Shown here one piece after another: positions 1,199 to 29,674 of a stretch of 32,557 bases of DNA. The stretch covers positions 1-32,557 of the forward strand of contig NZ_NIRT01000033.1 of assembly GCF_003207795.1 (NCBI RefSeq). The letters are read 5' to 3'. The notes below the pieces were generated by a model. That model worked only from the letters and a program-made list of their open reading frames with translations, was not told the origin of the DNA and searched no databases. The position numbers were made by a program, and so were the translations under genes. How positions within the stretch are numbered: the first letter of the stretch is position 1; every line of letters begins with the position of its first letter. The DNA is from Komagataeibacter nataicola (GTDB taxonomy: Bacteria; Pseudomonadota; Alphaproteobacteria; Acetobacterales; Acetobacteraceae).

Positions 1199-1220
1199 GA
1201 ATGCTTTGATAAAAAACGGC

Positions 1221-1300
1221 AAAAGCTCTGGGCTGCCGCCTTTTTTCAAAAAAGCGGTGGTCCCTGAAGTTTTTTGAAAAAAGCTTCACCAAAAACTTCT
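1221..1300 (-). repeat. Dispersed palindromic repeat, copy A (long form, diverged)
   Basis: This copy is in the reverse orientation relative to the copy at 19140. It contains a degenerate outer repeat (AAAAGCTCTGGG at 1221, CCAAAAACTTCT ending at 1300), one arm around GCCGCCTTTTTTCAAAAAAGC and a second around TGAAGTTTTTTGAAAAAAGCTTCA. It lies between two plus-strand genes, 22 bases after the nuclease stop. The mismatches in the outer repeat make it the most diverged long copy in this window. Confidence 0.85.
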
Positions 1301-1359
1301 GATGGTTTGCGGGTAGGCTTTTCACCCTGCCACCGGGAAATATTCTGGATGAAGGAGAC

Positions 1360-13443: not shown

Positions 13444-13455
13444 ATCATTAAAGTC

Positions 13456-13513
13456 ATAAAAGTTTTTGGATGCCGCCTTTTTCAAAAAGGCCGCGTTCTT
13501 TTGAAGCTTTTAT
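13456..13513 (-). repeat. Dispersed palindromic repeat, copy B (short form)
   Basis: 58 bases, reverse orientation. It begins ATAAAAGTTTTTGG, continues with one intact arm (GCCGCCTTTTTCAAAAAGGCCGC, one mismatch) and ends GAAGCTTTTAT. Half of the second arm and the adjoining outer repeat are missing; the junction on the minus strand reads ATAAAAGCTTC, joining the AAAAG of the outer repeat to the AAAAG of the arm. It sits between the convergent stops of amn (13443) and the phosphoesterase gene (13521). Confidence 0.85.
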
Positions 13514-13520
13514 CCGTTAA

Positions 13521-14336
13521 TCAGAAATCCGGCAGCGTGGGCGCAAGGTGGCCGCCCTGCCGCACCGGCGCCATGCGGCGGGCCAGGCCGGTGGCATCAT
13601 CGGTTTCCACCATCATGCCCGCGATGCTGGCTTCGCCCTCGGCCGGTTGCAGCCGCTCGCCGGGCATCTTGCGCACGAATCGGGCAATGGCCGCATCCTT
13701 GCCCATGCCGATCACGCTGTCATAGTCGCCACACATGCCCGCATCGGTCTGAAAAGCCGTGCCATGGGGGAAGATGCGGTGGTCCGCCGTGGGCGTGTGC
13801 GTGTGCGTGCCAATGACCAGCGACACCCGGCCATCAAGAAAATGGCCCATGGCCCATTTCTCGCTCGTGGCTTCGGCATGCACGTCCACCACAGCGGCAT
13901 GCATGGTAACACCCAGCCGGTGACGCGAGAGGATGTCGGTCACGCTGCGGAAGGGGTCATCCATCGCATCCATGAACTGCCGGCCCATGATGCTGACCAC
14001 CAGCGCCTTGCGGCCATCGACAAGTTCCACCACCACGCTGCCCTGCCCCGGCGTGCCGGGCGGGTAGTTGGCGGGGCGGATGATGCGGGGCTCGCTGCCG
14101 ATATGGCCGATGAGATCGCGCCGGTCCCAGCTATGGTTGCCCAGCGTGATGACATCGGCCCCCGCCTCAAGCAGGTCGCGGCCAATGGCGGGCGAGAGAC
14201 CGAAGCCGTGGCTGGCGTTCTCGCCATTAACCACCACGAGGTCGAGGGCAAGATCGCGCCGCAGGGCGGGCAGGCGGGAAATGACGGCCTCGCGGCCTAC
14301 GCGCCCGACAATATCGCCCAGAAACAGTATTCTCAA
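13521..14336 (-). CDS. YmdB/TIGR00282-family metallophosphoesterase
   Basis: 271 residues, full length for the family. Metal-binding motifs: FLGDIVGRVGR at the N terminus, VVNGENASHGFG (about 35-46), TLGNHSWDRRD (about 65-75), VDVHAEATSEK and VIGTHTHTPTADHRI. Proteins of this family are cytoplasmic metal-dependent 2',3'-cyclic nucleotide phosphodiesterases with effects on RNA turnover and multicellular behaviour in Bacillus; the role in alphaproteobacteria is not settled. It lies 15 bases downstream of fau, and the order zapA, 6S RNA, fau, ymdB-like suggests one transcript. Confidence 0.92.
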   Translation of the reverse strand: MRILFLGDIVGRVGREAVISRLPALRRDLALDLVVVNGENASHGFGLSPAIGRDLLEAGADVITLGNHSWDRRDLIGHIGSEPRIIRPANYPPGTPGQGSVVVELVDGRKALVVSIMGRQFMDAMDDPFRSVTDILSRHRLGVTMHAAVVDVHAEATSEKWAMGHFLDGRVSLVIGTHTHTPTADHRIFPHGTAFQTDAGMCGDYDSVIGMGKDAAIARFVRKMPGERLQPAEGEASIAGMMVETDDATGLARRMAPVRQGGHLAPTLPDF

Positions 14337-14351
14337 GAAAACAGCCTTTAT

Positions 14352-14963
14352 CTACCGCGTCCGCCCGTCACCACGACACCGGATCCATTCACGCTCGGTC
14401 ACGATCGCGGGCAGCGCCACGTCATACCGGCCGGTCGGGATGCACGCCACTTCCTGAAAGGAAAAGCCAAACCCCACGGCCCGCGCCGCAGGCAGGCTGG
14501 CCAGCGTGCGATCATAATAGCCCCCGCCATATCCCAGCCGCATGCCCCGCCTGTCAAATGCCAGCAGCGGCACGCACACCACATCAGGCTGCACGATGGG
14601 CCCTTCGGGGTGGGATGTGCCATAGCGGCCCGCCTGCATGGCGCAGCCCGGCTGCCACAGGCGGAAGGCCAGCTTATGGCCCTTGGGCGTGGTTTCGGGC
14701 AGGGCAATGCACAGGCCATCGGCATGGAGCGCGTGCATAACGGGCTGGAGTTCGCTCTCGCCGGGCAGTGGCCAGACAAGGGCGATGGCCTCCCCCGCCC
14801 CGGCCATGGCGCGCAGGGCGCGGACCATGCGGTGCTGGAGGGATTTCTCGGCCATCTCGCGCCCGGGCGCTGTGGCGAAGGCGGCCCGCCTGCTGGCCAT
14901 GACGCCGCGCAGGGCCTGTTTGGCATGCGCGGTGGACCACGATTCGTTTGCGATGGAAGTCAT
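14352..14963 (-). CDS. fau: 5-formyltetrahydrofolate cyclo-ligase
   Basis: Converts 5-formyl-THF with ATP to 5,10-methenyl-THF. 203 residues. N-terminal KQALRGVMASRRAAF gives the basic substrate/ATP region, and the C-terminal signature LAFDRRGMRLGYGGGYYDRT (about residues 134-153) is diagnostic. The protein is cytoplasmic. It lies directly downstream of a 6S RNA gene, the same ssrS-fau (ygfA) linkage known in many proteobacteria, where the 6S precursor can extend into the cyclo-ligase mRNA. Confidence 0.94.
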   Translation of the reverse strand: MTSIANESWSTAHAKQALRGVMASRRAAFATAPGREMAEKSLQHRMVRALRAMAGAGEAIALVWPLPGESELQPVMHALHADGLCIALPETTPKGHKLAFRLWQPGCAMQAGRYGTSHPEGPIVQPDVVCVPLLAFDRRGMRLGYGGGYYDRTLASLPAARAVGFGFSFQEVACIPTGRYDVALPAIVTEREWIRCRGDGRTR

Positions 14964-14975
14964 GGAAAATGATAC

Positions 14976-15129
14976 GGAGCCGCCATGGCCGTTGGTCGGA
15001 TCAGCCCTCCCGGACCTGCTGACGCAGGTGGGCGCCAGATAACGTGACCACGATCACGACAGTGCCAGCTCCCTAGGAAGTGCTTATCGGCCCAGGGGTT
15101 GAATCATGCCTGACGCACCCGGCAGCCCC
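14976..15129 (-). ncRNA. ssrS: 6S RNA
   Basis: The 177-base gap between zapA and fau is where 6S RNA lies in proteobacteria. On the minus strand, GGGGCTGCC (15129-15121) pairs with GGCGGCTCC (14984-14976) along all nine positions with two G-U pairs, closing a rod of about 154 bases. Inside, the strands flanking the centre (CACTTCCTAGGGAGC on one side, CAGCAGGTCCGGGAGGG on the other) can form the open bubble that mimics an open promoter for sigma-70 RNA polymerase. The top is a stem-loop around TCGTGATCGTGGTCACG. Ends are set by the closing stem and could extend a few bases. Identified by position and fold, not by a covariance-model search. Confidence 0.75.
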
Positions 15130-15140
15130 GCCCTTTCTAT

Positions 15141-15482
15141 TTAGTCCTCTTCCAGTGCGTCCGCAATGTTTTCCGCACGTTCGACAAGGTGAGCAAGCTG
15201 CTCTGCGCGGCGTTCGTTCTCGATGCGCGCCTGTCGGCCCTGCGCAAGCTGGTGGGCGGTGTCCGATGACATCTTTTCCGCCGTCAGGTCATGGATCTCG
15301 TCGGCCATGAGGAGGGCGGCAAGCGCAAGCAGCCGCCCCTCGCCGCTATGGCCGCCGAGTTCGCGGATGCGCTCGATCCGGCGCTCGACTTCCTGCGCCA
15401 TGGCCTGGAGGTGTTTCTCCTGCCCTTCCTTGCACCCCACGGCGTAGGAAAACCCATTGATGCGCACGGTAACCTGGCTCAT
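15141..15482 (-). CDS. zapA: Cell division protein ZapA
   Basis: Z-ring-associated protein that bundles FtsZ. 113 residues: N-terminal beta-rich head (MSQVTVRINGFSYAVGCKEG), then QEKHLQAMAQEVERRIERIR and a long helix with LLALAALLMADEIHDL that dimerises, ending in a coiled-coil-like tail (NERRAEQLAHLVERAENIAD). The zapA-6S RNA-fau order supports the call. It begins three bases after the upstream 88-residue gene, so the two are cotranscribed. Confidence 0.94.
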   Translation of the reverse strand: MSQVTVRINGFSYAVGCKEGQEKHLQAMAQEVERRIERIRELGGHSGEGRLLALAALLMADEIHDLTAEKMSSDTAHQLAQGRQARIENERRAEQLAHLVERAENIADALEED

Positions 15483-15485
15483 GGC

Positions 15486-15752
15486 CTATTCCTCCCCGCT
15501 GGTGGTTTCCCCACCCTCATCAAGCACGTCGCGCACGCGGGCGATGAGCACGTCGATATTGGCGGCAAGCGCCTGCAGATCAACATCGGGCGCCGCAGGC
15601 GGCTGGATGGCGGCCTGCCCGGCGCGGCGGTCAAGGGCGAAGGCAATGCGGTTAAGGGCGAGTTCAAGGCGATCAGCCGGATTCTCTCCAGCCTCCGAGG
15701 GGGAGCGCGTGGCGTCCTGTTCCGGTGGCATGATAATATCAGACACGTTCAT
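15486..15752 (-). CDS. Small acidic hypothetical protein upstream of zapA
   Basis: 88 residues from the ATG at 15752, which has GAGGGAAAGG directly upstream; a longer frame to 15806 lacks such a site. The N terminus is polar (MNVSDIIMPPEQDATRSPSE). Two predicted helices follow (ADRLELALNRIAFALDRR, and VDLQALAANIDVLIARVRDVLDE), giving an amphipathic, possibly coiled-coil protein. Many alphaproteobacteria carry a small coiled-coil protein next to zapA, so a role with ZapA is plausible but unproven. Confidence 0.75.
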   Translation of the reverse strand: MNVSDIIMPPEQDATRSPSEAGENPADRLELALNRIAFALDRRAGQAAIQPPAAPDVDLQALAANIDVLIARVRDVLDEGGETTSGEE

Positions 15753-15808
15753 CCTTTCCCTCGTTCCTCCCCTTGAACTGATCGCGCGGTGCGGTTTCAA
15801 CGTCAAGC

Positions 15809-16219
15809 ATGATCGACAAACATGACCATTATATGCCGCCTGTCACGGTTTCGGGCGCGGGGGAACTGGCGCTGGTCACCGCCACGGCGGCATCGTTACG
15901 CATAAACTGCGCCGTGGTTTCCCCGCCCGGTGCCGGGTGTTTCATGGGCGTGCCGTGGTGGGCGGCGCTGGTGGCGGGCTGCCCGCTGCCCGCCTGGCTG
16001 GACTGCGGGCAGGCGGCGGGCCATGCGGCAGCAGCCCTGCGCGCAGGATTGAGCGGTGTCATTGTCAGCGCCACCGCGCCGCAGCACCATGCACTCGTAT
16101 CACTGGCTCGCATGACGGGCGGCCACGTGCTGCGCCAGCGCCCGCACGCGCTGGAACTGCCGGCAAAGGGTGCGAGGGATGCGCTGGAAAGATACCTGCG
16201 TGCCTCCCACATACCATGA
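15809..16219 (+). CDS. Hypothetical protein, 136 aa, upstream of fba
   Basis: I do not recognise a family. The sequence alternates hydrophobic strands and helices (GELALVTATAASLRINCAVV, WWAALVAGCPLPAWLDCG, GLSGVIVSATAPQHHALVSL), which suggests a small alpha/beta fold without signal peptide. The first Met (MIDKHDHYMPP) is taken; Met9 is an alternative. It is divergent from the zapA-upstream gene by 56 bases and ends 59 bases before fba. The opposite-strand reading frames here lack ribosome binding sites, so this is the most likely coding frame. Confidence 0.6.
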   Translation: MIDKHDHYMPPVTVSGAGELALVTATAASLRINCAVVSPPGAGCFMGVPWWAALVAGCPLPAWLDCGQAAGHAAAALRAGLSGVIVSATAPQHHALVSLARMTGGHVLRQRPHALELPAKGARDALERYLRASHIP

Positions 16220-16278
16220 CAGAACCGTCCGGGCAGGCGCAGGATGCAAGGACACCCATATTGCAAGGGGAACAACAA

Positions 16279-17199
16279 ATGACACTGACACCGCAGGTCA
16301 AGGCGATCCTTGACCACTACGAAAGTGACACGCCGGGCACCAAGGCCAACCTGTACCGACTCATGAACACCGGCAAGCTCGCGGGCACCGGCAAGCTGGT
16401 GATCCTGCCGGTCGATCAGGGCTTCGAGCACGGGCCGGGCCGCTCATTCGCCCCCAACCCGCCCGCCTATGACCCGCATTATCACTACTCGCTCGCCATC
16501 GAGGCCGGGCTGAACGCATTCGCAGCGCCGCTCGGCATGCTTGAGGCAGGGGCCAGCACGTTCGCGGGCCAGATCCCCACCATCCTCAAATGCAACAGCT
16601 CCGACAGCCTGACCACGCAGAAGAACCAGGCCGTGACCGGCACGGTCGCCGATGCGCTGCGGCTGGGCTGCTCGGCCATCGGGTTTACCATCTACCCGGC
16701 CAGCGACTACCAGTTCCACCAGATGGAGCAGCTGCGCGAGATGGCGCGCGAGGCCAAGAATGCGGGCCTTGCCGTGGTGGTGTGGAGCTACCCGCGCGGC
16801 CCGATGCTCGACAAGGCAGGCGAGACGGCCATCGACATCTGCGCCTATGCCGCCCACATCGCCGCCGAACTTGGCGCGCACATCATCAAGGTCAAGCCCC
16901 CTACCGAGGACCTGTGCCTGCCTGCGGCCAAAAAGGTCTATATCGATGAAAAGGTCGATATTTCCACCCTGCCCGCGCGAATCCGCCATGTGGTGCAGTC
17001 GGCCTTTGCGGGCCGCCGCATCGTGATCTTCTCGGGCGGCGAGCACACCACCACCGAGCACCTGCTCGACACCATCCGTGGCATCCACCAGGGCGGCGGG
17101 TTCGGCTCGATCATCGGGCGCAACACCTTCCAGCGCCCACGTGCCGAAGCGCTGAAGCTGCTCGGTGACATCACCGACATCTTCGCGCAGAAGGTCTGA
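16279..17199 (+). CDS. fba: Class I fructose-bisphosphate aldolase (DhnA/FbaB type)
   Basis: Interconverts fructose 1,6-bisphosphate with dihydroxyacetone phosphate and glyceraldehyde 3-phosphate. 306 residues from ATG 16279, with AGGGGA upstream; the longer frame starting at 15937 is out of frame with the neighbouring ORF and not used. Landmarks: LVILPVDQGFEHGPG, the strand and loop AIGFTIYPASDYQF, VVVWSYPRG, and HIIKVKPPTEDL, which carries the expected Schiff-base lysine. GGEHTTTEHLL and IIGRNTFQRP near the C terminus bind phosphate. Acetic acid bacteria generally use the pentose phosphate route and lack phosphofructokinase, so aldolase here probably works in the gluconeogenic direction. 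Confidence 0.95.
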   Translation: MTLTPQVKAILDHYESDTPGTKANLYRLMNTGKLAGTGKLVILPVDQGFEHGPGRSFAPNPPAYDPHYHYSLAIEAGLNAFAAPLGMLEAGASTFAGQIPTILKCNSSDSLTTQKNQAVTGTVADALRLGCSAIGFTIYPASDYQFHQMEQLREMAREAKNAGLAVVVWSYPRGPMLDKAGETAIDICAYAAHIAAELGAHIIKVKPPTEDLCLPAAKKVYIDEKVDISTLPARIRHVVQSAFAGRRIVIFSGGEHTTTEHLLDTIRGIHQGGGFGSIIGRNTFQRPRAEALKLLGDITDIFAQKV

Positions 17200-17213
17200 T
17201 CCTTCCACGCACT

Positions 17214-17244
17214 CCCCCGCATGGCAAAGCTGGCCATGCGGGGG
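17214..17244 (+). terminator. Strong hairpin after fba
   Basis: CCCCCGCATGGC (17214-17225) pairs perfectly with GCCATGCGGGGG (17233-17244), a 12-bp GC-rich stem with a seven-base loop. A second small hairpin (GCCACCG with CGGTGGC, 17251-17267) follows. Neither has a U-run, so this may be a Rho-assisted end or an mRNA-stabilising structure between fba and the thiE-like gene. Confidence 0.6.
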
Positions 17245-17283
17245 CTGTTCGCCACCGCCACGGTGGCATAGGATCGGCCCGAC

Positions 17284-17916
17284 ATGACCGATTGCCAGCT
17301 CTATCTCATCACCCCCGAATCGCTTGATCCGGCCACCTTCGCCCCCCTCCTGGCCGAGGCGCTCGACGCAGGCCCGGTTGCGGCGGTGCAGCTACGCCTC
17401 AAGAACGTGGATGACGACACGATTCGCCGCGCGGTGGACGTGCTCCAGCCCGTGACCCATGCGCGTGACGTGGCCTTCATCATGAATGACCGCCCCGACC
17501 TTGCGGTAAGCTGTGGCTGCGACGGGGCGCATGTGGGCATGGACGATACCGATGTGGCCACTGCCCGGCGCATGCTGGGCGAGGAACGCCAGCTTGGCGT
17601 GTCCTGCTATGACAGCCGCGACATGGCCCTGCGCGCGGGCGAGGCCGGTGCGGATTACGTGGCGTTTGGCGCGTTCTTCCCCTCGCCATCGAAAGAAACC
17701 GAAGTGCGGGCCGATCCGGCGCTGCTCACATGGTGGAGCAGCATGATCGAACTGCCGGTGGTGGCCATTGGCGGCATCACACCTGCAAACTGCGGCACGC
17801 TGGTGCGCGCGGGGGCGGATTTCCTGTCGGTCATCAGCGCGGTGTGGTCGCACCCTGAGGGGCCGGGGGCCGGCGTAAAGGCCATGAACATGGCGATTGC
17901 CGCAGCGGAAGAATAA
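17284..17916 (+). CDS. thiE: Thiamine-phosphate synthase (ThiE-like)
   Basis: Family members join hydroxymethylpyrimidine diphosphate and thiazole phosphate to thiamine phosphate. 210 residues in a TIM-barrel pattern: QLYLITPESLDP at the N terminus, AAVQLRLKNVDD where substrate-contacting residues lie, FIMNDRPDLAVSCGCDGAHV with the Asn-Asp pair, VSCYDS, and YVAFGAFFPSPSKE and VVAIGGITPANCGTLVRAGA, the phosphate-binding loops. The typical Q-R-K motif is altered to QLRLKN, so a divergent ThiE/TenI-type member is possible. I see no TPP riboswitch upstream. The stop codon lies within repeat copy C. Confidence 0.85.
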   Translation: MTDCQLYLITPESLDPATFAPLLAEALDAGPVAAVQLRLKNVDDDTIRRAVDVLQPVTHARDVAFIMNDRPDLAVSCGCDGAHVGMDDTDVATARRMLGEERQLGVSCYDSRDMALRAGEAGADYVAFGAFFPSPSKETEVRADPALLTWWSSMIELPVVAIGGITPANCGTLVRAGADFLSVISAVWSHPEGPGAGVKAMNMAIAAAEE

Positions 17917-17998
17917 AAGTTTCCGGAGAAGCGTCTTTCAAAGAACTTCGAAAGACGCCGCCTTTTTAAAAAAAGGCGGCACCCAGAAACTGTTAATT
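17912..17998 (+). repeat. Dispersed palindromic repeat, copy C (long form)
   Basis: It starts AATAAAAGTTTCCGGAG, has a first arm with one bulge (GAAGCGTCTTT against AAAGAACTTC), then a perfect second arm (GCCGCCTTTTT against AAAAAGGCGGC), and ends CACCCAGAAACTGTTAATT. Its two ends overlap the stop codons of both flanking convergent genes: TAA of the thiE-like gene (17914-17916) and TAA of the HEAT-repeat gene (17995-17993, minus strand). Confidence 0.9.
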
Positions 17999-19018
17999 AA
18001 TGGCCCGTGCCTGCTGCTGGCGCAGATAGCCCGCCCATCGCCGCACGGTTGGACTACGGTCTGCCTCAAGCACAGGCACAATCGTAGCCAGATCGGGAAA
18101 ATCCCGCCAGCAATACGCCAATGCCCGCAGCGCCGTGCGCCTGACCATGGCGGAGCGGTCAAGCAGGGCCGTGGCGATCAGGGCATTACGGTCAACGGGC
18201 AGCGTGACATTCCGCCGGGTCAGTTCTGGCGCGGGGCGGTTGAGGCCCAGCGATTTGTTCACCCATTCCTGCCGGATGCCCGTTTTCCATCGCGCCTGCC
18301 CCCATAACAGCACCTGTAGCGCCGTTGCCCGCACGCTGGCCTGCCGGGCCATACTGGCCAGCATGGGCAGCGCAACATCAAGCAGCGGCGTGCGCAGGAA
18401 ATAGCGCAGGGTCACCGCCAGCGGGCCATCGCATGCGGTGGCAAACCGCGCGACCAGCAGCACCCGCACGGTGGGGCGGGCGAATAACTGGTCCATGCAG
18501 GCAGCCTGCGCGGGTGCCCAGCGGGTCCAGTCCTGCCAGCTTGCCCGCAGGGCCAGGCCCATGGCGACCGCAATATCGGGCGCAACCTGCGGGAACAGCC
18601 TGCCTGCACACCGTGCAGCGGCCTCGCGCACGGGGCCAGCCCAGTCATTGAGGCGCATGGCAAGGGCTGCCAGCATGAAAGGCGAGCGCGGCACGGTGGC
18701 CAGCGCGTTGAGGGCAGCCTCACGCACATGGCCATCGCGGTGCACTATGAGAACCTGCGCCAGCATGGGCATGGTGGCCAGCACGCCGCATATGCGGCGG
18801 CGATCCTTTCGGGGGTCTGTTACGGGGTAACAAAAACAGCACAACGCCTGTCCGGCCCGTACACTGGCCGTAACAACCTGCGCCGCTGGCAGGCCATCCA
18901 GCCTTGCAACACACGCCGCGACAAGGCCGGGGGGCGGCGCAATCCCTGCCAGCAGGCATTGGCCAAGCGCAACGAGGTCCGCCTCGAGCGCAGAGGGCAG
19001 GTCGTAATCCGTCAACAT
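17993..19018 (-). CDS. HEAT-repeat protein of unknown function
   Basis: 341 residues from ATG 19018 (MLTDYDLPSALEADLV); a TTG start at 19120 would add 34 residues. At least four HEAT-like helical repeats are visible, each with a Val-Arg-x-x-Ala core: DGHVREAALNALA, AGPVREAAARCAG, SAMVRRTALRALA and SPTVRRWAGYLRQ. The middle contains Trp-rich WQDWTRWAPAQAACMDQL. HEAT arrays bind proteins or nucleic acids; I cannot tell which. No signal peptide. Flanked on both sides by dispersed repeats (copies C and D), which isolates it as a single-gene unit. Confidence 0.75.
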   Translation of the reverse strand: MLTDYDLPSALEADLVALGQCLLAGIAPPPGLVAACVARLDGLPAAQVVTASVRAGQALCCFCYPVTDPRKDRRRICGVLATMPMLAQVLIVHRDGHVREAALNALATVPRSPFMLAALAMRLNDWAGPVREAAARCAGRLFPQVAPDIAVAMGLALRASWQDWTRWAPAQAACMDQLFARPTVRVLLVARFATACDGPLAVTLRYFLRTPLLDVALPMLASMARQASVRATALQVLLWGQARWKTGIRQEWVNKSLGLNRPAPELTRRNVTLPVDRNALIATALLDRSAMVRRTALRALAYCWRDFPDLATIVPVLEADRSPTVRRWAGYLRQQQARAIN

Positions 19019-19139
19019 GGCAAGAAAAGCTCCATGACCAGGTTCAGGCACCCAAAACGGGATCAATACCTGCCGACAGGAGGCCGGTGATCTTTTTACC
19101 AGCGAGGCCGCGGGTTGCAAATCCTGATAGACTAAAAAG

Positions 19140-19226
19140 AATAAAAGTTTTTGGTGAAGCTTTTTTCAAAAAGCTTCGAAAAGACGCCGCCTTTTTGAAA
19201 AAAGGCGGCACCCAAAAACTTTTATT
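19140..19226 (+). repeat. Dispersed palindromic repeat, copy D (best-preserved, type copy)
   Basis: 87 bases. Outer inverted repeat AATAAAAGTTTTTGG (19140-19154) against CCAAAAACTTTTATT (19212-19226), 15 of 15 matches. Arm 1: GAAGCTTTTT-TC-AAAAAGCTTC, a perfect 10-bp stem. A short linker (GAAAAGAC) follows, then arm 2: GCCGCCTTTTT-GA-AAAAAGGCGGC, a perfect 11-bp stem. Folded, this gives a three-way junction. It lies 14 bases after the end of epmA and upstream of the HEAT-repeat gene. Confidence 0.95.
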
Positions 19227-19239
19227 ACTTTCTAGTATT

Positions 19240-20262
19240 TTACGATCCGGCTCCCAGCCACTGCACATCCGCAATGCGGTTCGTGCCCGCCGCCAGCATC
19301 ACCAGCCGGTCAAAGCCCAGCGCAATGCCCGCGCAGGGCGGCAGGGTGCCAAGGGCTGACAGAAAGGCTTCATCCATCGGCCAGTCCAGCCCGGATTCGC
19401 CGGGGTACAGGGCTGCGCGCCGCGCCCGGTCGGCCTCAAAGCGGGCGCGCTGCTCGGCGGGGTCGGTCAGTTCCTCAAACGCATTGGCCAGTTCGATGCC
19501 CCCTGCATAAAGCTCAAAACGCAGCGCCACGCGCGGGTCGGCGGGATCGCGCCGGGCCAGCGCCGCCTGGCTTGCGGGCCAGTGGGTGAGAAAAGTGGGG
19601 CGCGTGCGGCCGATATGCGGCTCGATGCGCGCCATCATCAGGCGGAAGAACAGATCCTCCCACGTCTCGCCCCGGCGCAGGTCACAGCCTGCCGCCTCAG
19701 CCAGCGCCGGGGCGTCGCCCTCATGGGCAAGAATGTCCACCCCCGCATAGCGCGCGAAGGCTTCGGCAACCGTCAGGCGCTCGAAGGGGGCAGTCGTACT
19801 GATTTCATTTTCCCCTGCCCGCACCACCGGCGGCAGGACCGCGCGCAGCAGGGATTCGGTTTCATCCATCAGCCCTGCCAGCGTCGCACCCGGGCGGTAC
19901 CATTCCAGCATGGTGAACTCATGGGCGTGCAGCCTGCTGCCCTCTTCATTGCGCCACACCCGCGCCAGTTGGTACACGGGCAGGCCGGTGGCGGCGACGA
20001 TGCGCTTCATGGCGAATTCCGGGCTGGTGTGCAGCCACAACCGCTCGCGGCTGCCATCGACCCCCGCGCGCTCGGTGGCAAACACCTTGAGGTGCACTTC
20101 CTCGCCCGGAGTCGGCACGGCGTAGGGGGTCTCGACTTCCGTATAGCCACGCGCATCAAAAAACGCCCGCACCCCGCGCAGCACGAGGTTGCGGCGCAAT
20201 AGCCGCGGCAGCCGGTCGGCAATGCGGGCGCAGTCGGGGCGTGGAGGCAGGGACTCGGGCAT
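19240..20262 (-). CDS. epmA: EF-P--(R)-beta-lysine ligase EpmA (PoxA/GenX)
   Basis: A lysyl-tRNA-synthetase-like enzyme that attaches (R)-beta-lysine to EF-P. 340 residues from ATG 20262. It has the class II synthetase catalytic core but lacks the anticodon-binding domain, the defining feature of the PoxA/GenX group. Motifs: VRAFFDARGYTEVETPYAV (motif 1 region), LHTSPEFAMKRIVAA, VYQLARVWRNEE (motif 2), and GIALGFDRLVMLAAGTNRI (motif 3) at the C terminus. It is divergent from epmB with about 50 bases between, so the two modification genes share a regulatory region. The 939-residue frame that covers this region is an artefact of open GC-rich sequence. Confidence 0.95.
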   Translation of the reverse strand: MPESLPPRPDCARIADRLPRLLRRNLVLRGVRAFFDARGYTEVETPYAVPTPGEEVHLKVFATERAGVDGSRERLWLHTSPEFAMKRIVAATGLPVYQLARVWRNEEGSRLHAHEFTMLEWYRPGATLAGLMDETESLLRAVLPPVVRAGENEISTTAPFERLTVAEAFARYAGVDILAHEGDAPALAEAAGCDLRRGETWEDLFFRLMMARIEPHIGRTRPTFLTHWPASQAALARRDPADPRVALRFELYAGGIELANAFEELTDPAEQRARFEADRARRAALYPGESGLDWPMDEAFLSALGTLPPCAGIALGFDRLVMLAAGTNRIADVQWLGAGS

Positions 20263-20313
20263 GGGGCACGCTCTTTGGTTGCAGCGGACGGATACGCGCA
20301 GTACAGCCCCCGC

Positions 20314-21378
20314 ATGGCACTCCCGGTCAATCCCCCCCAGCCCCCGCGCACGCTGCGCAGCGTGGCCGACCTGCTTGCGGCAGGACTGATCACGCCCGCG
20401 CAGGCCCCGGCGCTGGAAAATGTGGCGCAACACTACGCCACCGCCATTCCGCCCGCCTTTGCCGACCTGATCGAGACCCCGGATGACCCGATCGGCCGCC
20501 AGGTCATTCCCGATGCGGCGGAATGCCATACCGACCCCACGGAAGACCCGGACCCGATTGGCGATGACGCACTCTCCCCCGTGCCGGGCATCGTGCATCG
20601 CTATGCCGACCGCGCGCTGCTCAAGCCGCTGCTGGTCTGCCCGCTTTACTGCCGCTTCTGCTTCCGCCGCGAGCATGTCGGCCCCGGCGGCGGCGTGCTT
20701 GATGAGGCCGCCCTTGTGCGCGCGCTCGACTGGCTGCGCACGCATACGGACATTCATGAAGTCGTGATGACCGGCGGCGACCCGCTCATGCTCTCGGCGC
20801 GGCGCATGCGCATGATCATGCAGGCCCTTGAGGGCATGACGCACATCCACACCATCCGCATCCACTCCCGCGTGCCGGTGGCCGATCCCGACCGGCTGGA
20901 TGAGGCGATGGCCGCAGCCCTCGAGACCACGCGCTCGATGTGGCTGGTGCTTCATGTCAACCACGCCCGCGAACTCACGCCCGCAGCCCGCGCCGCCATC
21001 CGCCGCGTGCAGGCGCGCGCCATACCGGTGCTGGGGCAATCCGTGCTGCTGCGCGGCGTAAATGATACGCCCGAGGCGCTCGAGGCGCTTTTGCGCGCGC
21101 AGGTGGCCGCCCGCATCCGCCCCTATTACCTGCACCAGCTTGACCCTGCACCCGGCACCGCGCGCTTTCACGTGCCCATACGCGAGGGGCAGCGCCTGCT
21201 GGCCAGCCTGCGCGGGCGGGTGACGGGCATTGCCTGGCCGACCTATGTGCTCGACATTCCCGGCGGGCATGGCAAGGTGCCGATCGGGCCGGATTACCTG
21301 CGCACCGGGCCCGATGGCATGCTCCATGCACTGGCGCCTGATGGCACGCTGCACCGCCTTGCGCGCGAACGGGGCTGA
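20314..21378 (+). CDS. epmB: EF-P beta-lysylation protein EpmB (lysine 2,3-aminomutase family)
   Basis: Radical-SAM, PLP-dependent lysine 2,3-aminomutase that makes the (R)-beta-lysine used by EpmA. 354 residues from ATG 20314; an upstream TTG at 20275 would add 13. The 4Fe-4S cluster motif is C109-PLY-C113-RF-C116 (CPLYCRFCFRRE). MTGGDPLML follows. The PLP-binding lysine is in DIPGGHGKVPIGP, the counterpart of the PGGGGK motif of lysine aminomutases. It lacks the C-terminal zinc-tetramerisation extension of clostridial enzymes, consistent with the EpmB branch. efp follows 87 bases downstream. Confidence 0.95.
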   Translation: MALPVNPPQPPRTLRSVADLLAAGLITPAQAPALENVAQHYATAIPPAFADLIETPDDPIGRQVIPDAAECHTDPTEDPDPIGDDALSPVPGIVHRYADRALLKPLLVCPLYCRFCFRREHVGPGGGVLDEAALVRALDWLRTHTDIHEVVMTGGDPLMLSARRMRMIMQALEGMTHIHTIRIHSRVPVADPDRLDEAMAAALETTRSMWLVLHVNHARELTPAARAAIRRVQARAIPVLGQSVLLRGVNDTPEALEALLRAQVAARIRPYYLHQLDPAPGTARFHVPIREGQRLLASLRGRVTGIAWPTYVLDIPGGHGKVPIGPDYLRTGPDGMLHALAPDGTLHRLARERG

Positions 21379-21465
21379 AAAGAAGGGCGCGAAACCTTGC
21401 CCTTCCGCGCGCGGGGCGCTAGAAGCCGAACCGCCATACTTCCCACAACCATCACAGGGACCACC

Positions 21466-22032
21466 ATGAAGCAGCAGGCAAACCTGATCCGTGCCGGGCA
21501 GGTCATCGAGCACGACGGCCGTCGCTGGACGGTCCTGAAGCAGCAGATCATCACGCCGGGCAAGGGTGGCGCATTCATCCAGGTGGAAATGCGCGACCTC
21601 AAGACCGGCAACAAGACCAACGAGCGCTGGCGCACCGCCGACACCGTTGAACGCCTGATGACCGAGGAGAAGGAATACACCTACTCCTACATGGACGGCG
21701 ACAACATCGTGCTCATGGACCCCGAGACCTTCGAGCAGCTGCTCCTGCCGCTTGACCTGCTGGGCGATCAGGCCCCCTTCCTGCAGGACAACATGACCCT
21801 GGTACTCAACCTCGTGGAAGGCGACCCGGTTGGCGTGACGCTGCCAGCCCAGGTGACCCTTGAGGTGGTCGAGGCCGACCCTGTGGTGAAGGGCCAGACG
21901 GCAAGCTCGTCCTACAAGCCCGCCCGCCTGTCCAACGGCGTGAAAACCATGGTGCCCCCCTTCATTGAAGCCGGCGAGCGCATCGTGGTCCGCACCGAGG
22001 ACAGCAGCTACGTCGAGCGCGCCAAGTCCTGA
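21466..22032 (+). CDS. efp: Translation elongation factor P
   Basis: Rescues ribosomes stalled at proline stretches. 188 residues from ATG 21466, with AGGGA upstream. The modification loop reads TPGKGGAF, with Lys33 as the beta-lysylated residue. The rest matches EF-P: VEMRDLKTGNKTNERWRTAD, YMDGDNIVLMDPETFEQL, and the C-terminal OB domain (VNGV-type region SNGVKTMVPPFIEAGERIVVRTED). With epmA and epmB adjacent, the whole core pathway is in 2.8 kb. Proline-rich proteins encoded nearby (the TonB-like and OmpA-like genes) are the kind of targets that need it. Confidence 0.97.
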   Translation: MKQQANLIRAGQVIEHDGRRWTVLKQQIITPGKGGAFIQVEMRDLKTGNKTNERWRTADTVERLMTEEKEYTYSYMDGDNIVLMDPETFEQLLLPLDLLGDQAPFLQDNMTLVLNLVEGDPVGVTLPAQVTLEVVEADPVVKGQTASSSYKPARLSNGVKTMVPPFIEAGERIVVRTEDSSYVERAKS

Positions 22033-22040
22033 CCCCACGG

Positions 22041-22080
22041 GGCGGCAGCCTGCCCGCATGCAGGCCGCCTCCCGTTTTTT
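22041..22080 (+). terminator. Rho-independent terminator of efp
   Basis: GGCGGCAGCCTGC (22041-22053) pairs with GCAGGCCGCC (22060-22069) with a small bulge. TCCCG and a run of six T follow. It begins eight bases after the efp stop. Confidence 0.8.
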
Positions 22081-22131
22081 CCTTCACCCTTCACACCCGT
22101 TCCACCGCCGAACCAGACAGGACCGATCACC

Positions 22132-22959
22132 GTGGCAATGCGACTCTCTCCCCATATGACGGTGATGCAGAACGCTGCCCAGAAGGCCGCACGCCGCCTT
22201 CTGCGTGACTTCAGCGAAGTCGAGCAGCTTCAGGTCAGCATCAAGGGGCCTGGCGATTTCGTCTCGCAGGCCGACCTGCGGGCCGAAACCACCATCCACG
22301 AGGAACTGGCACGCGCCCGGCCCGGCTACGCCTTCCTGATGGAGGAAAGCGGTGCCTCGGGCAGCGAAGGCTGGACATGGCGCTGGGTGATCGACCCGCT
22401 CGATGGCACCACCAACTTCCTGCACGGCGTGCCGCACTGGGCCATTTCCATCGGCCTGCAGCGCCGCCTGCCCGATGGCACGATCGAGATCGTGGCAGGG
22501 CTGGTGTACAACCCCGTAGCCAACGAGATGTTCTGGGCCGAAAAGGGCGTTGGCGCATTCCTCAACGACCGCCGCCTGCGCGTATCGGCCCGCCGGTCGA
22601 TGAACGAGGCGCTGTTCGCCACCGGCATTCCGTTCGCCAAGGTCTCGGCGCGCAACCGCCTGTCGTTTGCGCGCACGCTGGGCGCGCTCATGCCGCAGGT
22701 GGCGGGCATCCGCCGATTCGGCGCCGCCGCCCTCGACCTCGCCTGGGTCGCGGCTGGCCGGTATGACGGCTACTGGGAACTGGGCATCAAGCCGTGGGAC
22801 TGCGCGGCCGGCATCCTGCTCGTGCGCGAGGCCGGTGGCTACGCAACCGACCCGGCGGGCGAGGATCTCAACGATCTTGCGGCCTCCATCGATGCGGTGG
22901 TGGGCAACCCCCACATGCATGGCCCTCTGCGCGAACTCGTGGCCAGCAGCATCGACTGA
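22132..22959 (+). CDS. Inositol monophosphatase family protein
   Basis: 275 residues from GTG 22132 (an ATG lies two codons further), with AGGACC upstream. Li-sensitive Mg-dependent phosphatase signatures: MEESG with the metal-binding Glu, WVIDPLDGTTNFLHGVPHW (about residues 84-102), and the C-terminal GIKPWDCAAGILLVREAGG. N-terminal FVSQADLRAE supplies another metal ligand. Family members hydrolyse inositol phosphates or 3'-phosphoadenosine 5'-phosphate, and SuhB also aids ribosomal RNA transcription; the subtype is not decided by sequence. Next to the envelope genes, so possibly cotranscribed with them. Confidence 0.93.
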   Translation: MAMRLSPHMTVMQNAAQKAARRLLRDFSEVEQLQVSIKGPGDFVSQADLRAETTIHEELARARPGYAFLMEESGASGSEGWTWRWVIDPLDGTTNFLHGVPHWAISIGLQRRLPDGTIEIVAGLVYNPVANEMFWAEKGVGAFLNDRRLRVSARRSMNEALFATGIPFAKVSARNRLSFARTLGALMPQVAGIRRFGAAALDLAWVAAGRYDGYWELGIKPWDCAAGILLVREAGGYATDPAGEDLNDLAASIDAVVGNPHMHGPLRELVASSID

Positions 22960-23032
22960 TGCGCGGCACGGGCCCCTGTGGCCCGTTTGCCGATTGCGCC
23001 CCCGCCTGCGGCCCGGTAGCCTGCCGGGCATA

Positions 23033-23989
23033 ATGCAGCACACATTCCCCTCCCTTCCCCGCCGGTCCGCGCGCGTGCTGGCCGTGCTGGGTGTTGCCAC
23101 CTGCGCCCTGCTGGGCAGTGCGCAGGCGCAGGTCACCACCAGCAGGAGCGCGCTCGACGCGCTTGGCGCCCCCAAGAAACGCGCCACCATGCTGCCCGAT
23201 GGCGGCAGCATGAGCCTGTCGGGCGCCACCATGCCCGACACGCCGGACAGCGCCACCAGCGCGCCGCCCGCAGCCGAGCTGCCCCCCACGCCCACGGCCC
23301 GCCCACGGAAGGGTGCCAGCACCCCGCCACCCGCCACCCGTCACGCAACCGCTCCGGCCCCGGCGCCAGCACCGCAGGCCGCAAGCCCCGCGCCAGCGCC
23401 CGCCGCAGCAGCCCCGGCCGGCACGCACGCGACAACAGCGCCCCCCACCACGAGCGGGGCCACCAATGCAGTCGCCCCCGCCGCCGCCATTGCCGCCCTG
23501 CCGCCGGTAGCCGCCAGACCACCCGACAACCCGGTGCTGCACCCGCCCGAGACGCATGTGCCGCTGCACCCCTTCACGCCCCCGCCCGAGGTCAAGGCCG
23601 ACCCGCAGGCACGCGGCCGGGCGGAAAAGGTTACGGGTGGCACGCGCCTGCACTTCACCACGCAGTCAGCGGACATGAATCCGCGCATGGTTACGGCCCT
23701 GCAAACATTTGCCACAATCATGCAAAAGCTGCCGGACCAGCACATCAACATCGTGGCCTATGGCGAAGGCCGCCCCGATGATCCCTCCACGCCACGGCGG
23801 GTTGCCTTGAGCCGCGGGCTTGCCGCGCGCTCGGTACTGATCCACGCGGGCGTGGCCCCCACCCGCATCTATGTGCGCGCCATCGGCCTGCCCGATGAGA
23901 ACGCCCAGGGCGCGGGTGCGGATTGTGTTGACGTAACCCGTTCCGGTGTGGTGGCCTCAAACACCCCTACCGACCCACCGGCGCATTAA
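23033..23989 (+). CDS. Exported Ala/Pro-rich protein with OmpA-like C-terminal domain
   Basis: 318 residues. A signal peptide with a twin-arginine-free basic n-region (MQHTFPSLPRRSARV) and cleavage after GSAQA. About 150 residues rich in Ala, Pro and Thr follow (residues 60-200), probably an extended spacer. The C-terminal 110 residues fit an OmpA-like peptidoglycan-binding fold: TRLHFTTQSADMNPRMVTAL, INIVAYGEGRPDD, RVALSRGLAARSVLIHAGV and RIYVRAIG. It is 12 bases upstream of the MotA-like gene, whose ribosome binding site overlaps the stop of this one, so they are coupled. The start has no strong ribosome binding site. Confidence 0.75.
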   Translation: MQHTFPSLPRRSARVLAVLGVATCALLGSAQAQVTTSRSALDALGAPKKRATMLPDGGSMSLSGATMPDTPDSATSAPPAAELPPTPTARPRKGASTPPPATRHATAPAPAPAPQAASPAPAPAAAAPAGTHATTAPPTTSGATNAVAPAAAIAALPPVAARPPDNPVLHPPETHVPLHPFTPPPEVKADPQARGRAEKVTGGTRLHFTTQSADMNPRMVTALQTFATIMQKLPDQHINIVAYGEGRPDDPSTPRRVALSRGLAARSVLIHAGVAPTRIYVRAIGLPDENAQGAGADCVDVTRSGVVASNTPTDPPAH

Positions 23990-24001
23990 GGAAACCATTG
24001 C

Positions 24002-25048
24002 GTGACACGACCGACGACCTACCTTTTGCGGGTTCTTGTGTTTCTTCTGGCTGTCGGGGTTGTCGCAGCCCTGCTTTCCCCCACCCTCTATCAGGCGTTC
24101 TGCAACAATCCCTATCTTGATGGCCTGATCATCGGCATTCTCGTGCTCGGGGTGGCGTGGAACATCATCATGATCCTGCGCCTCATCCCCGAGGTGCGCT
24201 GGGTCAACATCCTGCGCCACCCGCGTGAGGGGCTGACCACGCCGCCGCCACCGCGCCTGCTCGCTCCCATGGCCTCGATGCTGGCCACGCACGACAAGGG
24301 CCGCAGGCTCACACTTTCCGCCCCGGTCATGCAGTCGCTGCTCGACAGCCTCTCCGCGCGCCTTGACGAAGGGCGCGAACTCTCGCGCTACCTCACCGGG
24401 CTGCTCATCTTCCTCGGCCTGCTCGGCACGTTTTATGGCCTGCTGCTGACCGTGGGCTCCATTGCCGATGTGATTGGCAACATGTCGGCTGGCAACGGCG
24501 ACACCAACGCCATGTTCGACCAGCTCAAGACCGGGCTGGCAGGCCCGCTGCATGGCATGGGCACGGCGTTCTCGGGTTCGATGTTCGGGCTTGCGGGCGC
24601 GCTTGTGCTGGGCTTCCTTGATCTGACGGCAGGCCAGGCCCAGACCCGCTTCTTCAACGAGCTTGAGGAATGGCTGGCCACCATCACCCGCCTTTCGGCA
24701 GGCGGACTGCAGGTTGGCGGCAATGATGCCAGCGTGCCCGCCTATGTGCAGGCCCTGCTCGAGCACACCGCCGAGAACATGGAAAAGCTGCAGGCCCTCA
24801 TGGCCCGCGGCGAGGAGACGCGCGCCCAGGAGCAGCGCCTGCTGACCGCGCTGAACGACCGCCTGGCCCAACTGGCCGACAACCGGGGCGAGGACCACCT
24901 GCAGGGCATCGAATCCCTGCTGGCCCGCCTTGTGCAGGAATCGGCGGCAGGGCGCGAGCAGATGGCAGCCGACATCCGCAACGACCTGCGCCTGCTCGCG
25001 CGCACCATTGCCGCAAGCACGCCCGGAACGGGCCACTCCGCTTCCTGA
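24002..25048 (+). CDS. MotA/TolQ/ExbB-family proton-channel protein
   Basis: 348 residues from GTG 24002, with AAGGAAA upstream. Four hydrophobic segments at about 8-27, 40-59, 131-151 and 188-210. Segments three and four carry the family motif (GLLIFLGLLGTFYGLLLTVG and GMGTAFSGSMFGLAGALVLG). The C-terminal 110 residues are a long charged helical region (ENMEKLQALMARGEETRAQE, LLARLVQESAAGREQMAADI), an unusual tail for TolQ or ExbB. With the MotB-like partner downstream it should form a proton-driven stator-like complex in the inner membrane. No flagellar genes are near. Confidence 0.87.
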   Translation: MTRPTTYLLRVLVFLLAVGVVAALLSPTLYQAFCNNPYLDGLIIGILVLGVAWNIIMILRLIPEVRWVNILRHPREGLTTPPPPRLLAPMASMLATHDKGRRLTLSAPVMQSLLDSLSARLDEGRELSRYLTGLLIFLGLLGTFYGLLLTVGSIADVIGNMSAGNGDTNAMFDQLKTGLAGPLHGMGTAFSGSMFGLAGALVLGFLDLTAGQAQTRFFNELEEWLATITRLSAGGLQVGGNDASVPAYVQALLEHTAENMEKLQALMARGEETRAQEQRLLTALNDRLAQLADNRGEDHLQGIESLLARLVQESAAGREQMAADIRNDLRLLARTIAASTPGTGHSAS

Positions 25049-25074
25049 CCGCAGACTAAGGCAAGGTTTATTTC

Positions 25075-26037: not shown

Positions 26038-26052
26038 GATGGGAAGAACGTG

Positions 26053-26140
26053 ATTAAAAGTTTTTGGTGAAGCTTTTTCAAAAAGCTTCAGTAAAGAATG
26101 CCGCCTTTTTGAAAAAAGGCGGCACCCAGACACTTTTATT
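26053..26140 (+). repeat. Dispersed palindromic repeat, copy E (long form)
   Basis: 88 bases: ATTAAAAGTTTTTGGTG, a perfect first arm (GAAGCTTTTTCAAAAAGCTTC), a longer linker (AGTAAAGAAT), a perfect second arm (GCCGCCTTTTT against AAAAAGGCGGC) and CACCCAGACACTTTTATT. It lies between the convergent stops of the MotB-like gene (26037) and the TPR-like gene (26156). Confidence 0.93.
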
Positions 26141-26155
26141 TTCTGGTTACGCCCA

Positions 26156-26770
26156 TCAGGTGGGCTGGCCAAAGGCCTTCAGGCGCAGTTGCTCGGTCTG
26201 GCGGGCCGCATCGGGAATGGTGGGCTCAAGCTGCACCACATGCTGCCACGCTTTCCACGCCGCCTGCCAGTCACCGCGCTGCGCTTCCGTATCTTCAAGA
26301 ATCTTCCATGCCATGACATCGCGCCCGTCATGGTGCAGGGCCACGCCCAGGTCAGCCACCGCGCCATCGGGGTTGGCGGCGGCAAGGCGGGCCTGCGCGC
26401 GGTTACGCCACAACACCTCTACATCAGGCTGGAGCAGCAGGGCATCATCCATGTCCTGCTCGGCATCGAGCGGGCGCTGGGCGTCAAGGTCATCCTGCGC
26501 GCGGCGCACCAGCAGCGTGGTGGTGGGGGCCAGATCCTTCAGGCGCAACTGCTCGATGCGCCCGAGCAGGTCACGCGCGCCGCGCGCGGTGGCCGCATGG
26601 GCCAGTTCTGTCTCCAGACTGTCCAGCGACGGCTCGGCTGCAGGGCTGCCATGCGCCCTGGCGGGCGGAGCTGCATGCCTGTCAAGCCCGTGGGCCGGAG
26701 CATCCGCCGCGCGGGCAGGCGGAGGCAAGAGGCTGGCGACAAGCATGAGTACGCACGAAAAGCCACGCAT
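26156..26770 (-). CDS. Exported TPR-like protein of unknown function
   Basis: 204 residues from ATG 26770, the start that places a signal peptide at the N terminus (MRGFSCVLMLVASLLPPPARA); a longer frame to 26833 puts 21 residues before it. The mature part has an Ala/Pro-rich linker, then helical repeats like TPRs (LLVRRAQDDLDAQRPLDAEQ, VLWRNRAQARLAAANPDGAV, MAWKILEDTEAQRGDWQAAW). It is probably periplasmic. Convergent with the stator-like cluster and separated by copy E. A role in envelope assembly is possible, but only from TPR and location. Confidence 0.7.
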   Translation of the reverse strand: MRGFSCVLMLVASLLPPPARAADAPAHGLDRHAAPPARAHGSPAAEPSLDSLETELAHAATARGARDLLGRIEQLRLKDLAPTTTLLVRRAQDDLDAQRPLDAEQDMDDALLLQPDVEVLWRNRAQARLAAANPDGAVADLGVALHHDGRDVMAWKILEDTEAQRGDWQAAWKAWQHVVQLEPTIPDAARQTEQLRLKAFGQPT

Positions 26771-28006: not shown

Positions 28007-28007
28007 C

Positions 28008-29615: not shown

Positions 29616-29674
29616 AGAAAAAGTTTCTGGGTGTTGTCTTTTTTCAAAAAGGCGGCGTCTTCCGAAGCTTTTAT
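29616..29674 (-). repeat. Dispersed palindromic repeat, copy F (short form)
   Basis: 59 bases, reverse orientation, with the same deletion as copy B: on the minus strand it starts ATAAAAGCTTC. The plus strand runs AAAAAGTTTCTGGGTG, an arm TTGTCTTTTTTC against AAAAAGGCGGC, then GTCTTCCGAAGCTTTTAT. It sits between tRNA-Asp and the end of the convergent fructosamine-kinase-family gene. Confidence 0.85.

What the first reader, a model, noticed from the sequence alone, without database searches (positions are those of the whole stretch)
19140..19226. A dispersed three-way-junction repeat in six copies
Seen directly: six related elements at 1221-1300, 13456-13513, 17912-17998, 19140-19226, 26053-26140 and 29616-29674. 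Full copies have an outer inverted repeat (AATAAAAGTTTTTGG and its complement) enclosing two separate hairpins, arm 1 with GAAGC/GCTTC ends and arm 2 with GCCGCC/GGCGGC ends, both centred on a T-run/A-run. All of it can fold as one cruciform with two arms. This is unlike single-hairpin REP or ordinary terminators. No transposase is near, and copies differ in sequence but keep pairing. Inference: a non-autonomous mobile element or RNA-shaped 3' module spread through the genome.
Basis: seen in the sequence. Interest (0 to 1): 0.78.

Follow-up and report, generated by a model that had tools for sequence, protein, structure and literature searches.

The report
Dispersed three-way-junction repeat at gene ends
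A short repeat that can fold into a three-armed shape sits just after the stop codons of many genes in acetic acid bacteria of the Komagataeibacter group, and it looks like a transcription stop signal that is also carried around by a small jumping element.

Summary
The six elements exist: four full-length, two single-arm. They belong to a large family: 109 copies in 832,557 bp sampled from this genome, about 480 by extrapolation; all 19 genus genomes searched match. Copies sit 3' of genes: 55 of 86 convergent, 44 of 286 tandem and 3 of 106 divergent gaps hold one. Elsewhere some copies are the middle of a roughly 162-bp MITE with ends GAGRCTGTTTGAAAA; 34 of 44 have identical 3-bp flanks, 31 of type TNA. 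The window copies are the bare core. Five orthologous sites are occupied in 58 of 64 genome-sites, yet orientation changes; flipped copies rank among unrelated copies (8th-55th of 90), so the occupant was probably exchanged. Repeats with the same base stem but other arms occur in further Acetobacteraceae genera. Best reading: a bidirectional, branched, terminator-like 3' module, spread by a MITE and kept for function. Termination is inferred; no transposase with these ends was found; an orientation bias did not replicate; simple terminator scans mostly miss the element; outside the Komagataeibacter group many repeats fold best as one long hairpin.

The parts
1216..1303 (-). full-length copy with a trace of the MITE right extension beside it; after the endonuclease-like gene 371-1198 (+), before ORF 1360-1638 (+)
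   Evidence: gene context, Pfam
13456..13513 (-). single-arm copy (arm 2 kept); between amn (11989-13443 +) and ymdB-like gene (13521-14336 -), convergent
   Evidence: Pfam
17912..17998 (+). full-length copy with damaged arm 1, overlapping both stop codons of thiE-like (17284-17916 +) and HEAT-repeat gene (17993-19120 -), convergent
   Evidence: Pfam
19140..19226 (+). best full-length copy: base stem 19140-19154 / 19212-19226, arm 1 about 19155-19178, arm 2 about 19186-19209; 13 bp from the stop of the epmA-like gene (stop at 19240, -)
   Evidence: Pfam
26053..26140 (+). full-length copy between ompA-like (25075-26037 +) and a TPR-like ORF (26156-26833 -; TPR match below Pfam's cut-off), convergent
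   Evidence: Pfam
29616..29674 (-). single-arm copy between tRNA-Asp (29485-29561 +) and a fructosamine-kinase-like gene (29687-30565 -), convergent
   Evidence: Pfam

Best explanation
The core is a symmetric 3'-end module that most likely works as a bidirectional intrinsic terminator whose hairpin is branched. When RNA polymerase runs past a stop codon, the two arms fold first; then CCAAAAAC pairs with GUUUUUGG to close the base stem directly in front of the CUUUUAUU tract, and polymerase is released there. The A-tract before the stem and the U-tract after it are mirror images, so one copy can serve both genes of a convergent pair. Copies spread as an approximately 162-bp MITE (TIR GAGRCTGTTTGAAAA, mostly TNA duplication), presumably moved in trans by an IS5-type transposase; the outer parts are later lost and the core is kept. 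Occupied sites can receive a new copy by insertion into the old one or by ectopic recombination, so the occupant and its orientation change while the site stays occupied. Shown by computation: copy number, 3' placement, MITE structure and duplications, occupancy of orthologous sites with changed orientation. Inferred: exchange as the cause of the flips, termination, the transposase, the order core-versus-MITE, the loss of the ends.
For: 3' placement in two separate samples: convergent 28 of 46 and 27 of 40 gaps occupied, tandem 20 of 156 and 24 of 130, divergent 1 of 56 and 2 of 50; in tandem gaps the median distance is 20 bp to the upstream stop against 146 bp to the next start, p 1e-8. Pairing kept under change: 49 double-changed cells against 26.1 in shuffles, 0 of 500; 70 of 94 copies fold singly as the junction on each strand. 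MITE: 34 of 44 identical flanking triplets, shifted controls 0 and 2. Sites occupied in 58 of 64 genome-sites although orientation differs at four of five sites among the five closest genomes; same-orientation orthologues are close (rank 0-3 of 90 in 7 of 9 comparisons, 9 and 17 in two), flipped ones rank 8-55. Extension-less cores lie 12.5 bp (median) from a stop. Other genera: base stem kept with other arms, pairing beyond the searched stem 117 against 97.2, 1 of 1000 shuffles.
Against: No transcript 3'-end data. A consensus terminator scan flags only one of the five elements in 12558-32557; a home-made scan of 104 full copies in one direction and 35 of 104 in the other. The orientation bias (18:5) did not replicate (14:12). 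An apparent lack of ordinary terminators beside elements vanished with matched masking. The U-tract is short and interrupted, and the base stem is A-T rich. RNAalifold on all 94 rows did not return the junction, only on the best 20-30 rows. In other genera 16 of 30 loci fold by minimum energy as one long hairpin. 3' placement is also expected of a tolerated selfish element. In 6 of 9 comparisons flipped copies are in the nearer half of the paralogues, so in-situ inversion is not strictly excluded.
Confidence: 0.62

Rival explanations
1. Selfish MITE family tolerated only where it does no harm: copies survive at gene 3' ends because promoters and coding sequence are purged; the fold is a by-product of inverted repeats or serves transposition.
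For: TIRs and duplications; 31 of the 44 MITEs could be placed, 14 convergent, 14 tandem, 3 divergent; new copies land in old ones (K. swingsii).
Against: Most cores have no ends left: 74 of 104 near-full cores show neither extension, yet are kept at 83% mean pairwise identity (57 copies compared); sites stay occupied through exchange; 64% of convergent gaps are occupied; same plan with other arms in other genera.
Confidence: 0.22
2. mRNA 3' stabiliser rather than terminator: the fold blocks exonucleases after termination by Rho or another signal further on, as proposed for REP elements (recalled).
For: Position next to stop codons; strong folds in both strands; weak scores as a terminator.
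Against: Mirrored A-tract and U-tract are what a bidirectional terminator would have; strong preference for convergent gaps.
Confidence: 0.1
3. DNA-level element: a cruciform or protein-binding site that takes up supercoils between convergent genes.
For: Symmetric in both strands; concentrated in convergent gaps.
Against: Also frequent in tandem gaps right after the stop (44 of 286); no protein or motif identified; not an uptake-signal-like word, since GAAGCTTTTT occurs outside elements only 2 of 82 times.
Confidence: 0.05

Closest known systems
Bacterial MITEs (Correia/NEMIS, RUP and others; reviews PMC2229807 and PMC10969869, passages seen)
   Same: about 100-200 bp, terminal inverted repeats, target duplication, stable folds, no coding sequence
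   Different: concentrated after stop codons; a core that persists without the ends; the core folds as a three-way junction
SPRITE, the Rho-independent terminator-like element of Streptococcus pneumoniae (named in PMC10969869, passage seen)
   Same: a small dispersed element described as terminator-like
   Different: other phylum; its sequence was not compared here; the branched plan and the TNA-flanked MITE form were seen here
Uptake-signal terminators of Neisseria and Pasteurellaceae (PMC1852404, passages seen)
   Same: hundreds of gene ends share a repeated word arranged as an inverted pair
   Different: here the words hardly occur outside the element, copies are whole 87-bp units, and a MITE form exists
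REP/BIME and GTAG- or CGTC-tagged palindromes with RAYT (PMC3733652, passage seen)
   Same: high-copy extragenic palindromes
   Different: no Y1 transposase in this genome; two arms in a base stem; that paper states that CGTC repeats are missing in Acetobacteraceae
IS5-family insertion sequences (IS1031-like group; the group name and its TNA target are recalled)
   Same: mostly TNA duplication and ends starting GAG; an IS with a PF13586 transposase in sister genome G015 (L311, 884 bp) shares 13 of 15 end bases with the MITE
   Different: no IS with the MITE's own ends was found; L311's flanking triplets (TTA, TGA) are not identical

Membership tests
MITE | short, non-coding, terminal inverted repeats | tested here: met
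   44 full-length copies of 150-164 bp, 37 of them 161-163, ends within 3 mismatches of GAGRCTGTTTGAAA; this was also the selection rule. The window copies themselves do not meet it
MITE | target-site duplication | tested here: met
   34 of 44 identical flanking triplets, 31 TNA; triplets 3 and 6 bp further out agree in 0 and 2; 43 distinct sequences, no two with similar flanks
MITE | filled and empty allelic sites | tested here: inconclusive
   exchange and nested insertion seen; the one gap comparison aligned was too diverged
MITE | autonomous element with the same ends | tested here: not met
   none in 40 own loci or in 30 loci from two sister genomes; the nearest, L311, shares 13 of 15 bases. 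Searches covered two Pfam families only
RAYT-driven REP | Y1/RAYT transposase in the genome | tested here: not met
   PF01797: 0 matches, 3 candidates scored
intrinsic terminator | stable hairpin followed directly by a U-tract | tested here: inconclusive
   base stem followed by CUUUUAUU by sequence; consensus scans mostly fail
intrinsic terminator | transcripts end there | not testable with these tools
   needs 3'-end mapping
DNA-uptake-signal terminator | short word frequent also outside terminators | tested here: not met
   GAAGCTTTTT 2 of 82 and AAGCTTTTT 3 of 94 outside elements; shorter words such as GGCGGCACC are common outside (62 of 89)
SPRITE | sequence relation to the pneumococcal element | not tested
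   only named in a review passage
Rfam family | score above gathering | tested here: not met
   no element is among the 3 window hits; only sub-gathering hits, mostly eukaryotic, at 19040-19330

The most novel reading that the evidence does not exclude
Across Acetobacteraceae there is a class of branched terminators in which the base stem (AAAAGTTTTT..AAAAACTTTT) and a two-arm plan persist while arm sequences are replaced wholesale; in Komagataeibacter and Novacetimonas it was packaged between IS5-like ends, so that terminators are seeded, exchanged and reoriented at orthologous gene ends by a mobile element that supplies most convergent gaps of the genome.
Probability: 0.33. Interest if true: 0.82.

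Novelty: new variant of a known kind. Interest (0 to 1): 0.62.

Why it matters
If right, most convergent gene pairs in these industrial bacteria end in copies of one transposable module. That would show how a mobile element can become the standard terminator of a genome, explain turnover of terminators at fixed sites, and add a branched hairpin design that simple terminator scans miss. It also gives a natural system for asking whether selection keeps an element while the individual copy is exchanged.

Tried and rejected
In-situ inversion between the outer repeats as the cause of flips: three flipped copies in nine comparisons rank 8-55 of 90 paralogues, against 0-3 (7 of 9), 9 and 17 for same-orientation orthologues; replacement is preferred, inversion not strictly excluded. 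DNA-uptake signal: the arm word is almost absent outside elements. RAYT-driven REP: no Y1 transposase. Phage origin: no phage-record match at E 1e-5. Direction-specific terminator (arm 2 read first): 18:5 in the first sample, 14:12 in the second, pooled 32:17, p 0.044; not claimed. Replacement of ordinary terminators: an apparent depletion, 7 of 101 against 22 of 83, was a length artefact (mask-matched mean 1.45 of 83). Wobble-pair strand test: helices 1 and 2 point one way, helix 3 the other. Autonomous IS: not found; L317 is another IS inserted in a MITE arm. Clean empty site: not obtained. Plasmid searches with MITE ends returned mostly chance matches. A Nostoc plasmid match to the end showed no annotated transposase next to it. 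Two Pseudoroseomonas cervicalis plasmid matches to one arm turned out on reading not to be the junction: the same words occur in another order. A first gene call missed epmA and was redone with more start choices; 17993-19120 was set by hand for the statistics. Literature: ten searches listed no description of this repeat; two of them returned nothing, several thousand hits of others were not opened, and only open-licence PubMed Central papers are covered, so this does not show that it is unpublished.

Full report
WHAT IS THERE. The six elements are real and close to the stated coordinates. Four are full-length and two (13456, 29616) have only arm 2. The best copy, 19140-19226, folds on either strand as an outer stem closing two hairpins (about -41 kcal/mol, z about -8). 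26053 does the same on the strand tested; 17912 has a damaged arm 1; 1216 and the single-arm copies fold weakly on the strand tested there, the latter better on the other strand. The window is one whole contig of a 3.67-Mb genome in 105 contigs. Its relatives, found with the 939-aa ORF that ends in the epmA-like gene, are Komagataeibacter species: K. melomenusus 93% over part of the query, K. xylinus 90%.

HOW MANY. A profile built from 30 copies finds 53 copies at E 1e-3 in the window plus 400 kb and 56 in a second 400 kb: 109 in 832,557 bp, or about 480 per genome if the sampled large contigs are typical; 66 of the 109 span more than 70 of the 88 positions. The covariance-model search of the whole genome scored 150 of 1436 candidates and kept 149, a capped lower bound. 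All 19 genomes of the genus match at E 1e-7 (18-150 matches each, at most 150 scored). In the family, 11 of 200 genomes in 4 of 102 genera match at E 1e-10 under stricter filters: the own genus (4 drawn), g73 (3; strong; probably Novacetimonas, because N. cocois, N. hansenii and N. maltaceti loci carry copies), and weakly g68 (3) and g80 (1). A later search showed Komagataeibacter-like copies also in one genome of g31 (G382). Five Asaia and Acetobacter loci scanned carried none. Four plasmid records match, three Komagataeibacter and one Novacetimonas; no phage record does.

WHERE COPIES SIT. Genes were called with a home-made hexamer caller, which makes boundary errors. Pooled over both samples, copies occupy 55 of 86 convergent, 44 of 286 tandem and 3 of 106 divergent gaps of at least 40 bp; one of 109 copies could not be placed in a gap. 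Both halves agree (28 of 46, 20 of 156, 1 of 56; then 27 of 40, 24 of 130, 2 of 50). In tandem gaps copies are next to the upstream stop (median 20 bp) and far from the next start (146 bp; p 1e-8). An orientation preference in the first half (18:5) was not seen in the second (14:12). I read this as a module of 3' ends that works either way round.

STRUCTURE UNDER CHANGE. On 94 full-length copies the named three-helix structure has 90.7% paired cells against 42-64% when the partner is slid by 1-3 columns; 15 of 36 pairs have changes on both sides (11.1 in shuffles, reached by 17 of 500); 49 double-changed cells against 26.1 in shuffles, 0 of 500. Shuffles ignore relatedness and the structure came from these copies, so this is support, not proof. 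RNAalifold on all 94 rows returned a different, very weak fold; on the best 20-30 rows it returned the junction. Individually 70 of 94 copies fold as the junction on each strand.

THE MOBILE FORM. Some copies continue outward on both sides to inverted ends GAGRCTGTTTGAAAA. Among 104 near-full cores from the loci then in hand, 13 had both extensions, 17 one and 74 neither at the chosen score. Collecting full-length elements from the fetched Komagataeibacter and Novacetimonas loci gave 44 insertions of 150-164 bp, 37 of them 161-163, with 43 distinct sequences and no two with similar flanks. Many were fetched because they carry the exact end, so the number is not a frequency. 34 have identical flanking triplets, 31 of the form TNA; triplets 3 and 6 bp further out agree in 0 and 2. 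This is a MITE by structure. The exact end occurs in 18 of 19 genus genomes, 63 times in G014, with no hits for the backward control. Bare cores lie nearer to stops (median 12.5 bp, 89% within 30 bp, n = 82) than MITE cores (median 57 bp, none within 30 bp, n = 28). The MITE's own extensions are about 35-42 bp long, which by itself forbids the short distances; so bare cores that close to stops must have lost the ends by deletion, been placed by recombination, or never had them.

SITES KEPT, COPIES EXCHANGED. Around the epmA-like gene, 17 named relatives plus the window cover five sites where the window has a copy. Genomes in which a site was not spanned by both flanking genes were dropped for that site. 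Copies or parts of copies are present in 13 of 15 (amn-ymdB), 15 of 17 (ompA-TPR), 15 of 17 (3' of epmA), 10 of 10 (cmd-fructosamine kinase) and 5 of 5 (thiE-HEAT): 58 of 64. The sites were chosen because the window is occupied there, which biases the count upward, and several genomes are close relatives. In the five closest genomes (window, three K. xylinus, K. melomenusus) four of the five sites show both orientations. Three flipped copies, in nine comparisons, rank 8-55 of 90 paralogues in similarity to their orthologues (six of the nine in the nearer half); same-orientation orthologues rank 0-3 in 7 of 9 comparisons and 9 and 17 in the other two. I take the flips as replacements. Two snapshots suggest how: a complete MITE inside what look like the remains of a resident element in K. 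swingsii, and in K. xylinus NBRC 15237 a reversed core that keeps the MITE's right end next to the resident's terminal TTAT. In K. saccharivorans the amn-ymdB site instead holds what looks, by eye, like an ordinary hairpin with a T-run.

BEYOND THE GENUS. Weak matches in g68 are repeats with the same base stem and other arms (for example GTGGCCCC..GGGGCCAC and GTGGGGGC..GCCCCCAC); of the eight read, most fold as the junction. A search for the base stem alone, AAAGTTTTT N46-76 AAAAACTTT, hits 57 of 397 family genomes in 18 of 102 genera, the own genus included; the backward control gives 0-3 per genome except 47 in G202. In the class, 22 of 385 genomes match, 20 of 380 outside the family, 18 of these 20 once and without arms visible in the listing. 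Of 27 loci fetched from the family search, by eye 23 show two inverted-repeat arms, L171 and L172 one, L175 none (inside a gene), and L179 is unclear. Pairing continues beyond the searched stem (117 pairs against 97.2 shuffled, 1 of 1000; 30 loci). By minimum energy 10 of these 30 fold with two hairpins, 16 as one long hairpin and 4 otherwise, because in many both arms are pyrimidine-then-purine. Of 35 such loci 23 are tandem, 8 convergent, 1 divergent, 2 inside genes and 1 unclassed. Two plasmid matches in Pseudoroseomonas cervicalis share the words in another order and are not the junction. Common descent of these repeats with the Komagataeibacter family is possible, not shown; the base stem was the search criterion.

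WHAT MOVES IT. The genome has no Y1 transposase match. It has 20 PF13586 and 28 PF13340 matches; of these, 40 loci (20 and 20, overlapping in places) were read and none has the MITE's ends as its own. Of 42 PF13586 matches in G014 and G015, 30 loci were read: L311 has ends GAGCCTGTTTGGAAA, 13 of 15 like the MITE, with TNA-type but unequal triplets; L317 is another IS inserted into a MITE arm. An IS5-type helper is likely but unproven; the family label and its TNA habit are recalled.

AGAINST THE TERMINATOR READING. The strongest objections are the lack of transcript data, the failure of simple terminator scans, the loss of the depletion signal under matched masking, and the one-hairpin folds in other genera. 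The positional and site-occupancy data still favour a 3'-end function over mere tolerance, and the mirrored A-tract and U-tract favour termination over other 3' roles; these last steps are inference.

LITERATURE. Passages were read in PMC8970348, PMC12306157, PMC3733652, PMC2267715, PMC1852404, PMC10969869, PMC2229807 and PMC2680597; other papers were seen only as search listings with abstract beginnings. The review PMC10969869 calls it conceivable that MITEs could act through Rho-independent terminators and names SPRITE as terminator-like. I therefore file this as a new variant of a known kind.

Noticed in passing
window 19240-22059 (-): The 939-aa ORF is probably a short epmA-like gene (class II tRNA-synthetase domain at residues 621-933) with a long open shadow antisense to a radical-SAM/lysine-aminomutase-like gene (20314-21378 +).
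   Followed up: partly
window 13456-13513 and 29616-29674: A recurrent single-arm form in which arm 1 and the left base stem seem deleted between AAAAG repeats, leaving ATAAAAGCTTC; at the amn-ymdB site three close relatives have the full form in the same orientation.
   Followed up: partly
window 5160-5232: Weak model match (E 0.017) between ORF 4313-5179 (+) and tRNA-His (-): a CTTTTGCTGAA/TTCAGCAAAAG stem around a GC-rich hairpin, perhaps an unrelated convergent terminator or a degenerate copy.
   Followed up: no
window 14973-15131 (-): 6S RNA by Rfam (72.7 bits).
   Followed up: no
L317 (G014:C58): An IS of about 0.8 kb with ends like GGGCCTGTTGGGAATT sits inside arm 1 of a MITE copy; similar ends flank transposase locus L137 of the own genome.
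   Followed up: partly
L031 and L020: The same MITE sequence occurs on Novacetimonas hansenii plasmid p1 and in the own genome at different places, so plasmids may carry it between genera.
   Followed up: no
G014: 63 exact MITE ends, far more than in the sister genomes listed, suggesting a recent burst; contig length and a shared MITE locus suggest G014 is K. swingsii LMG 22125.
   Followed up: partly
L218 1400-1560 and L219 1400-1560: Pseudoroseomonas cervicalis plasmids carry the base-stem and arm words in permuted order around a GC-rich hairpin.
   Followed up: no
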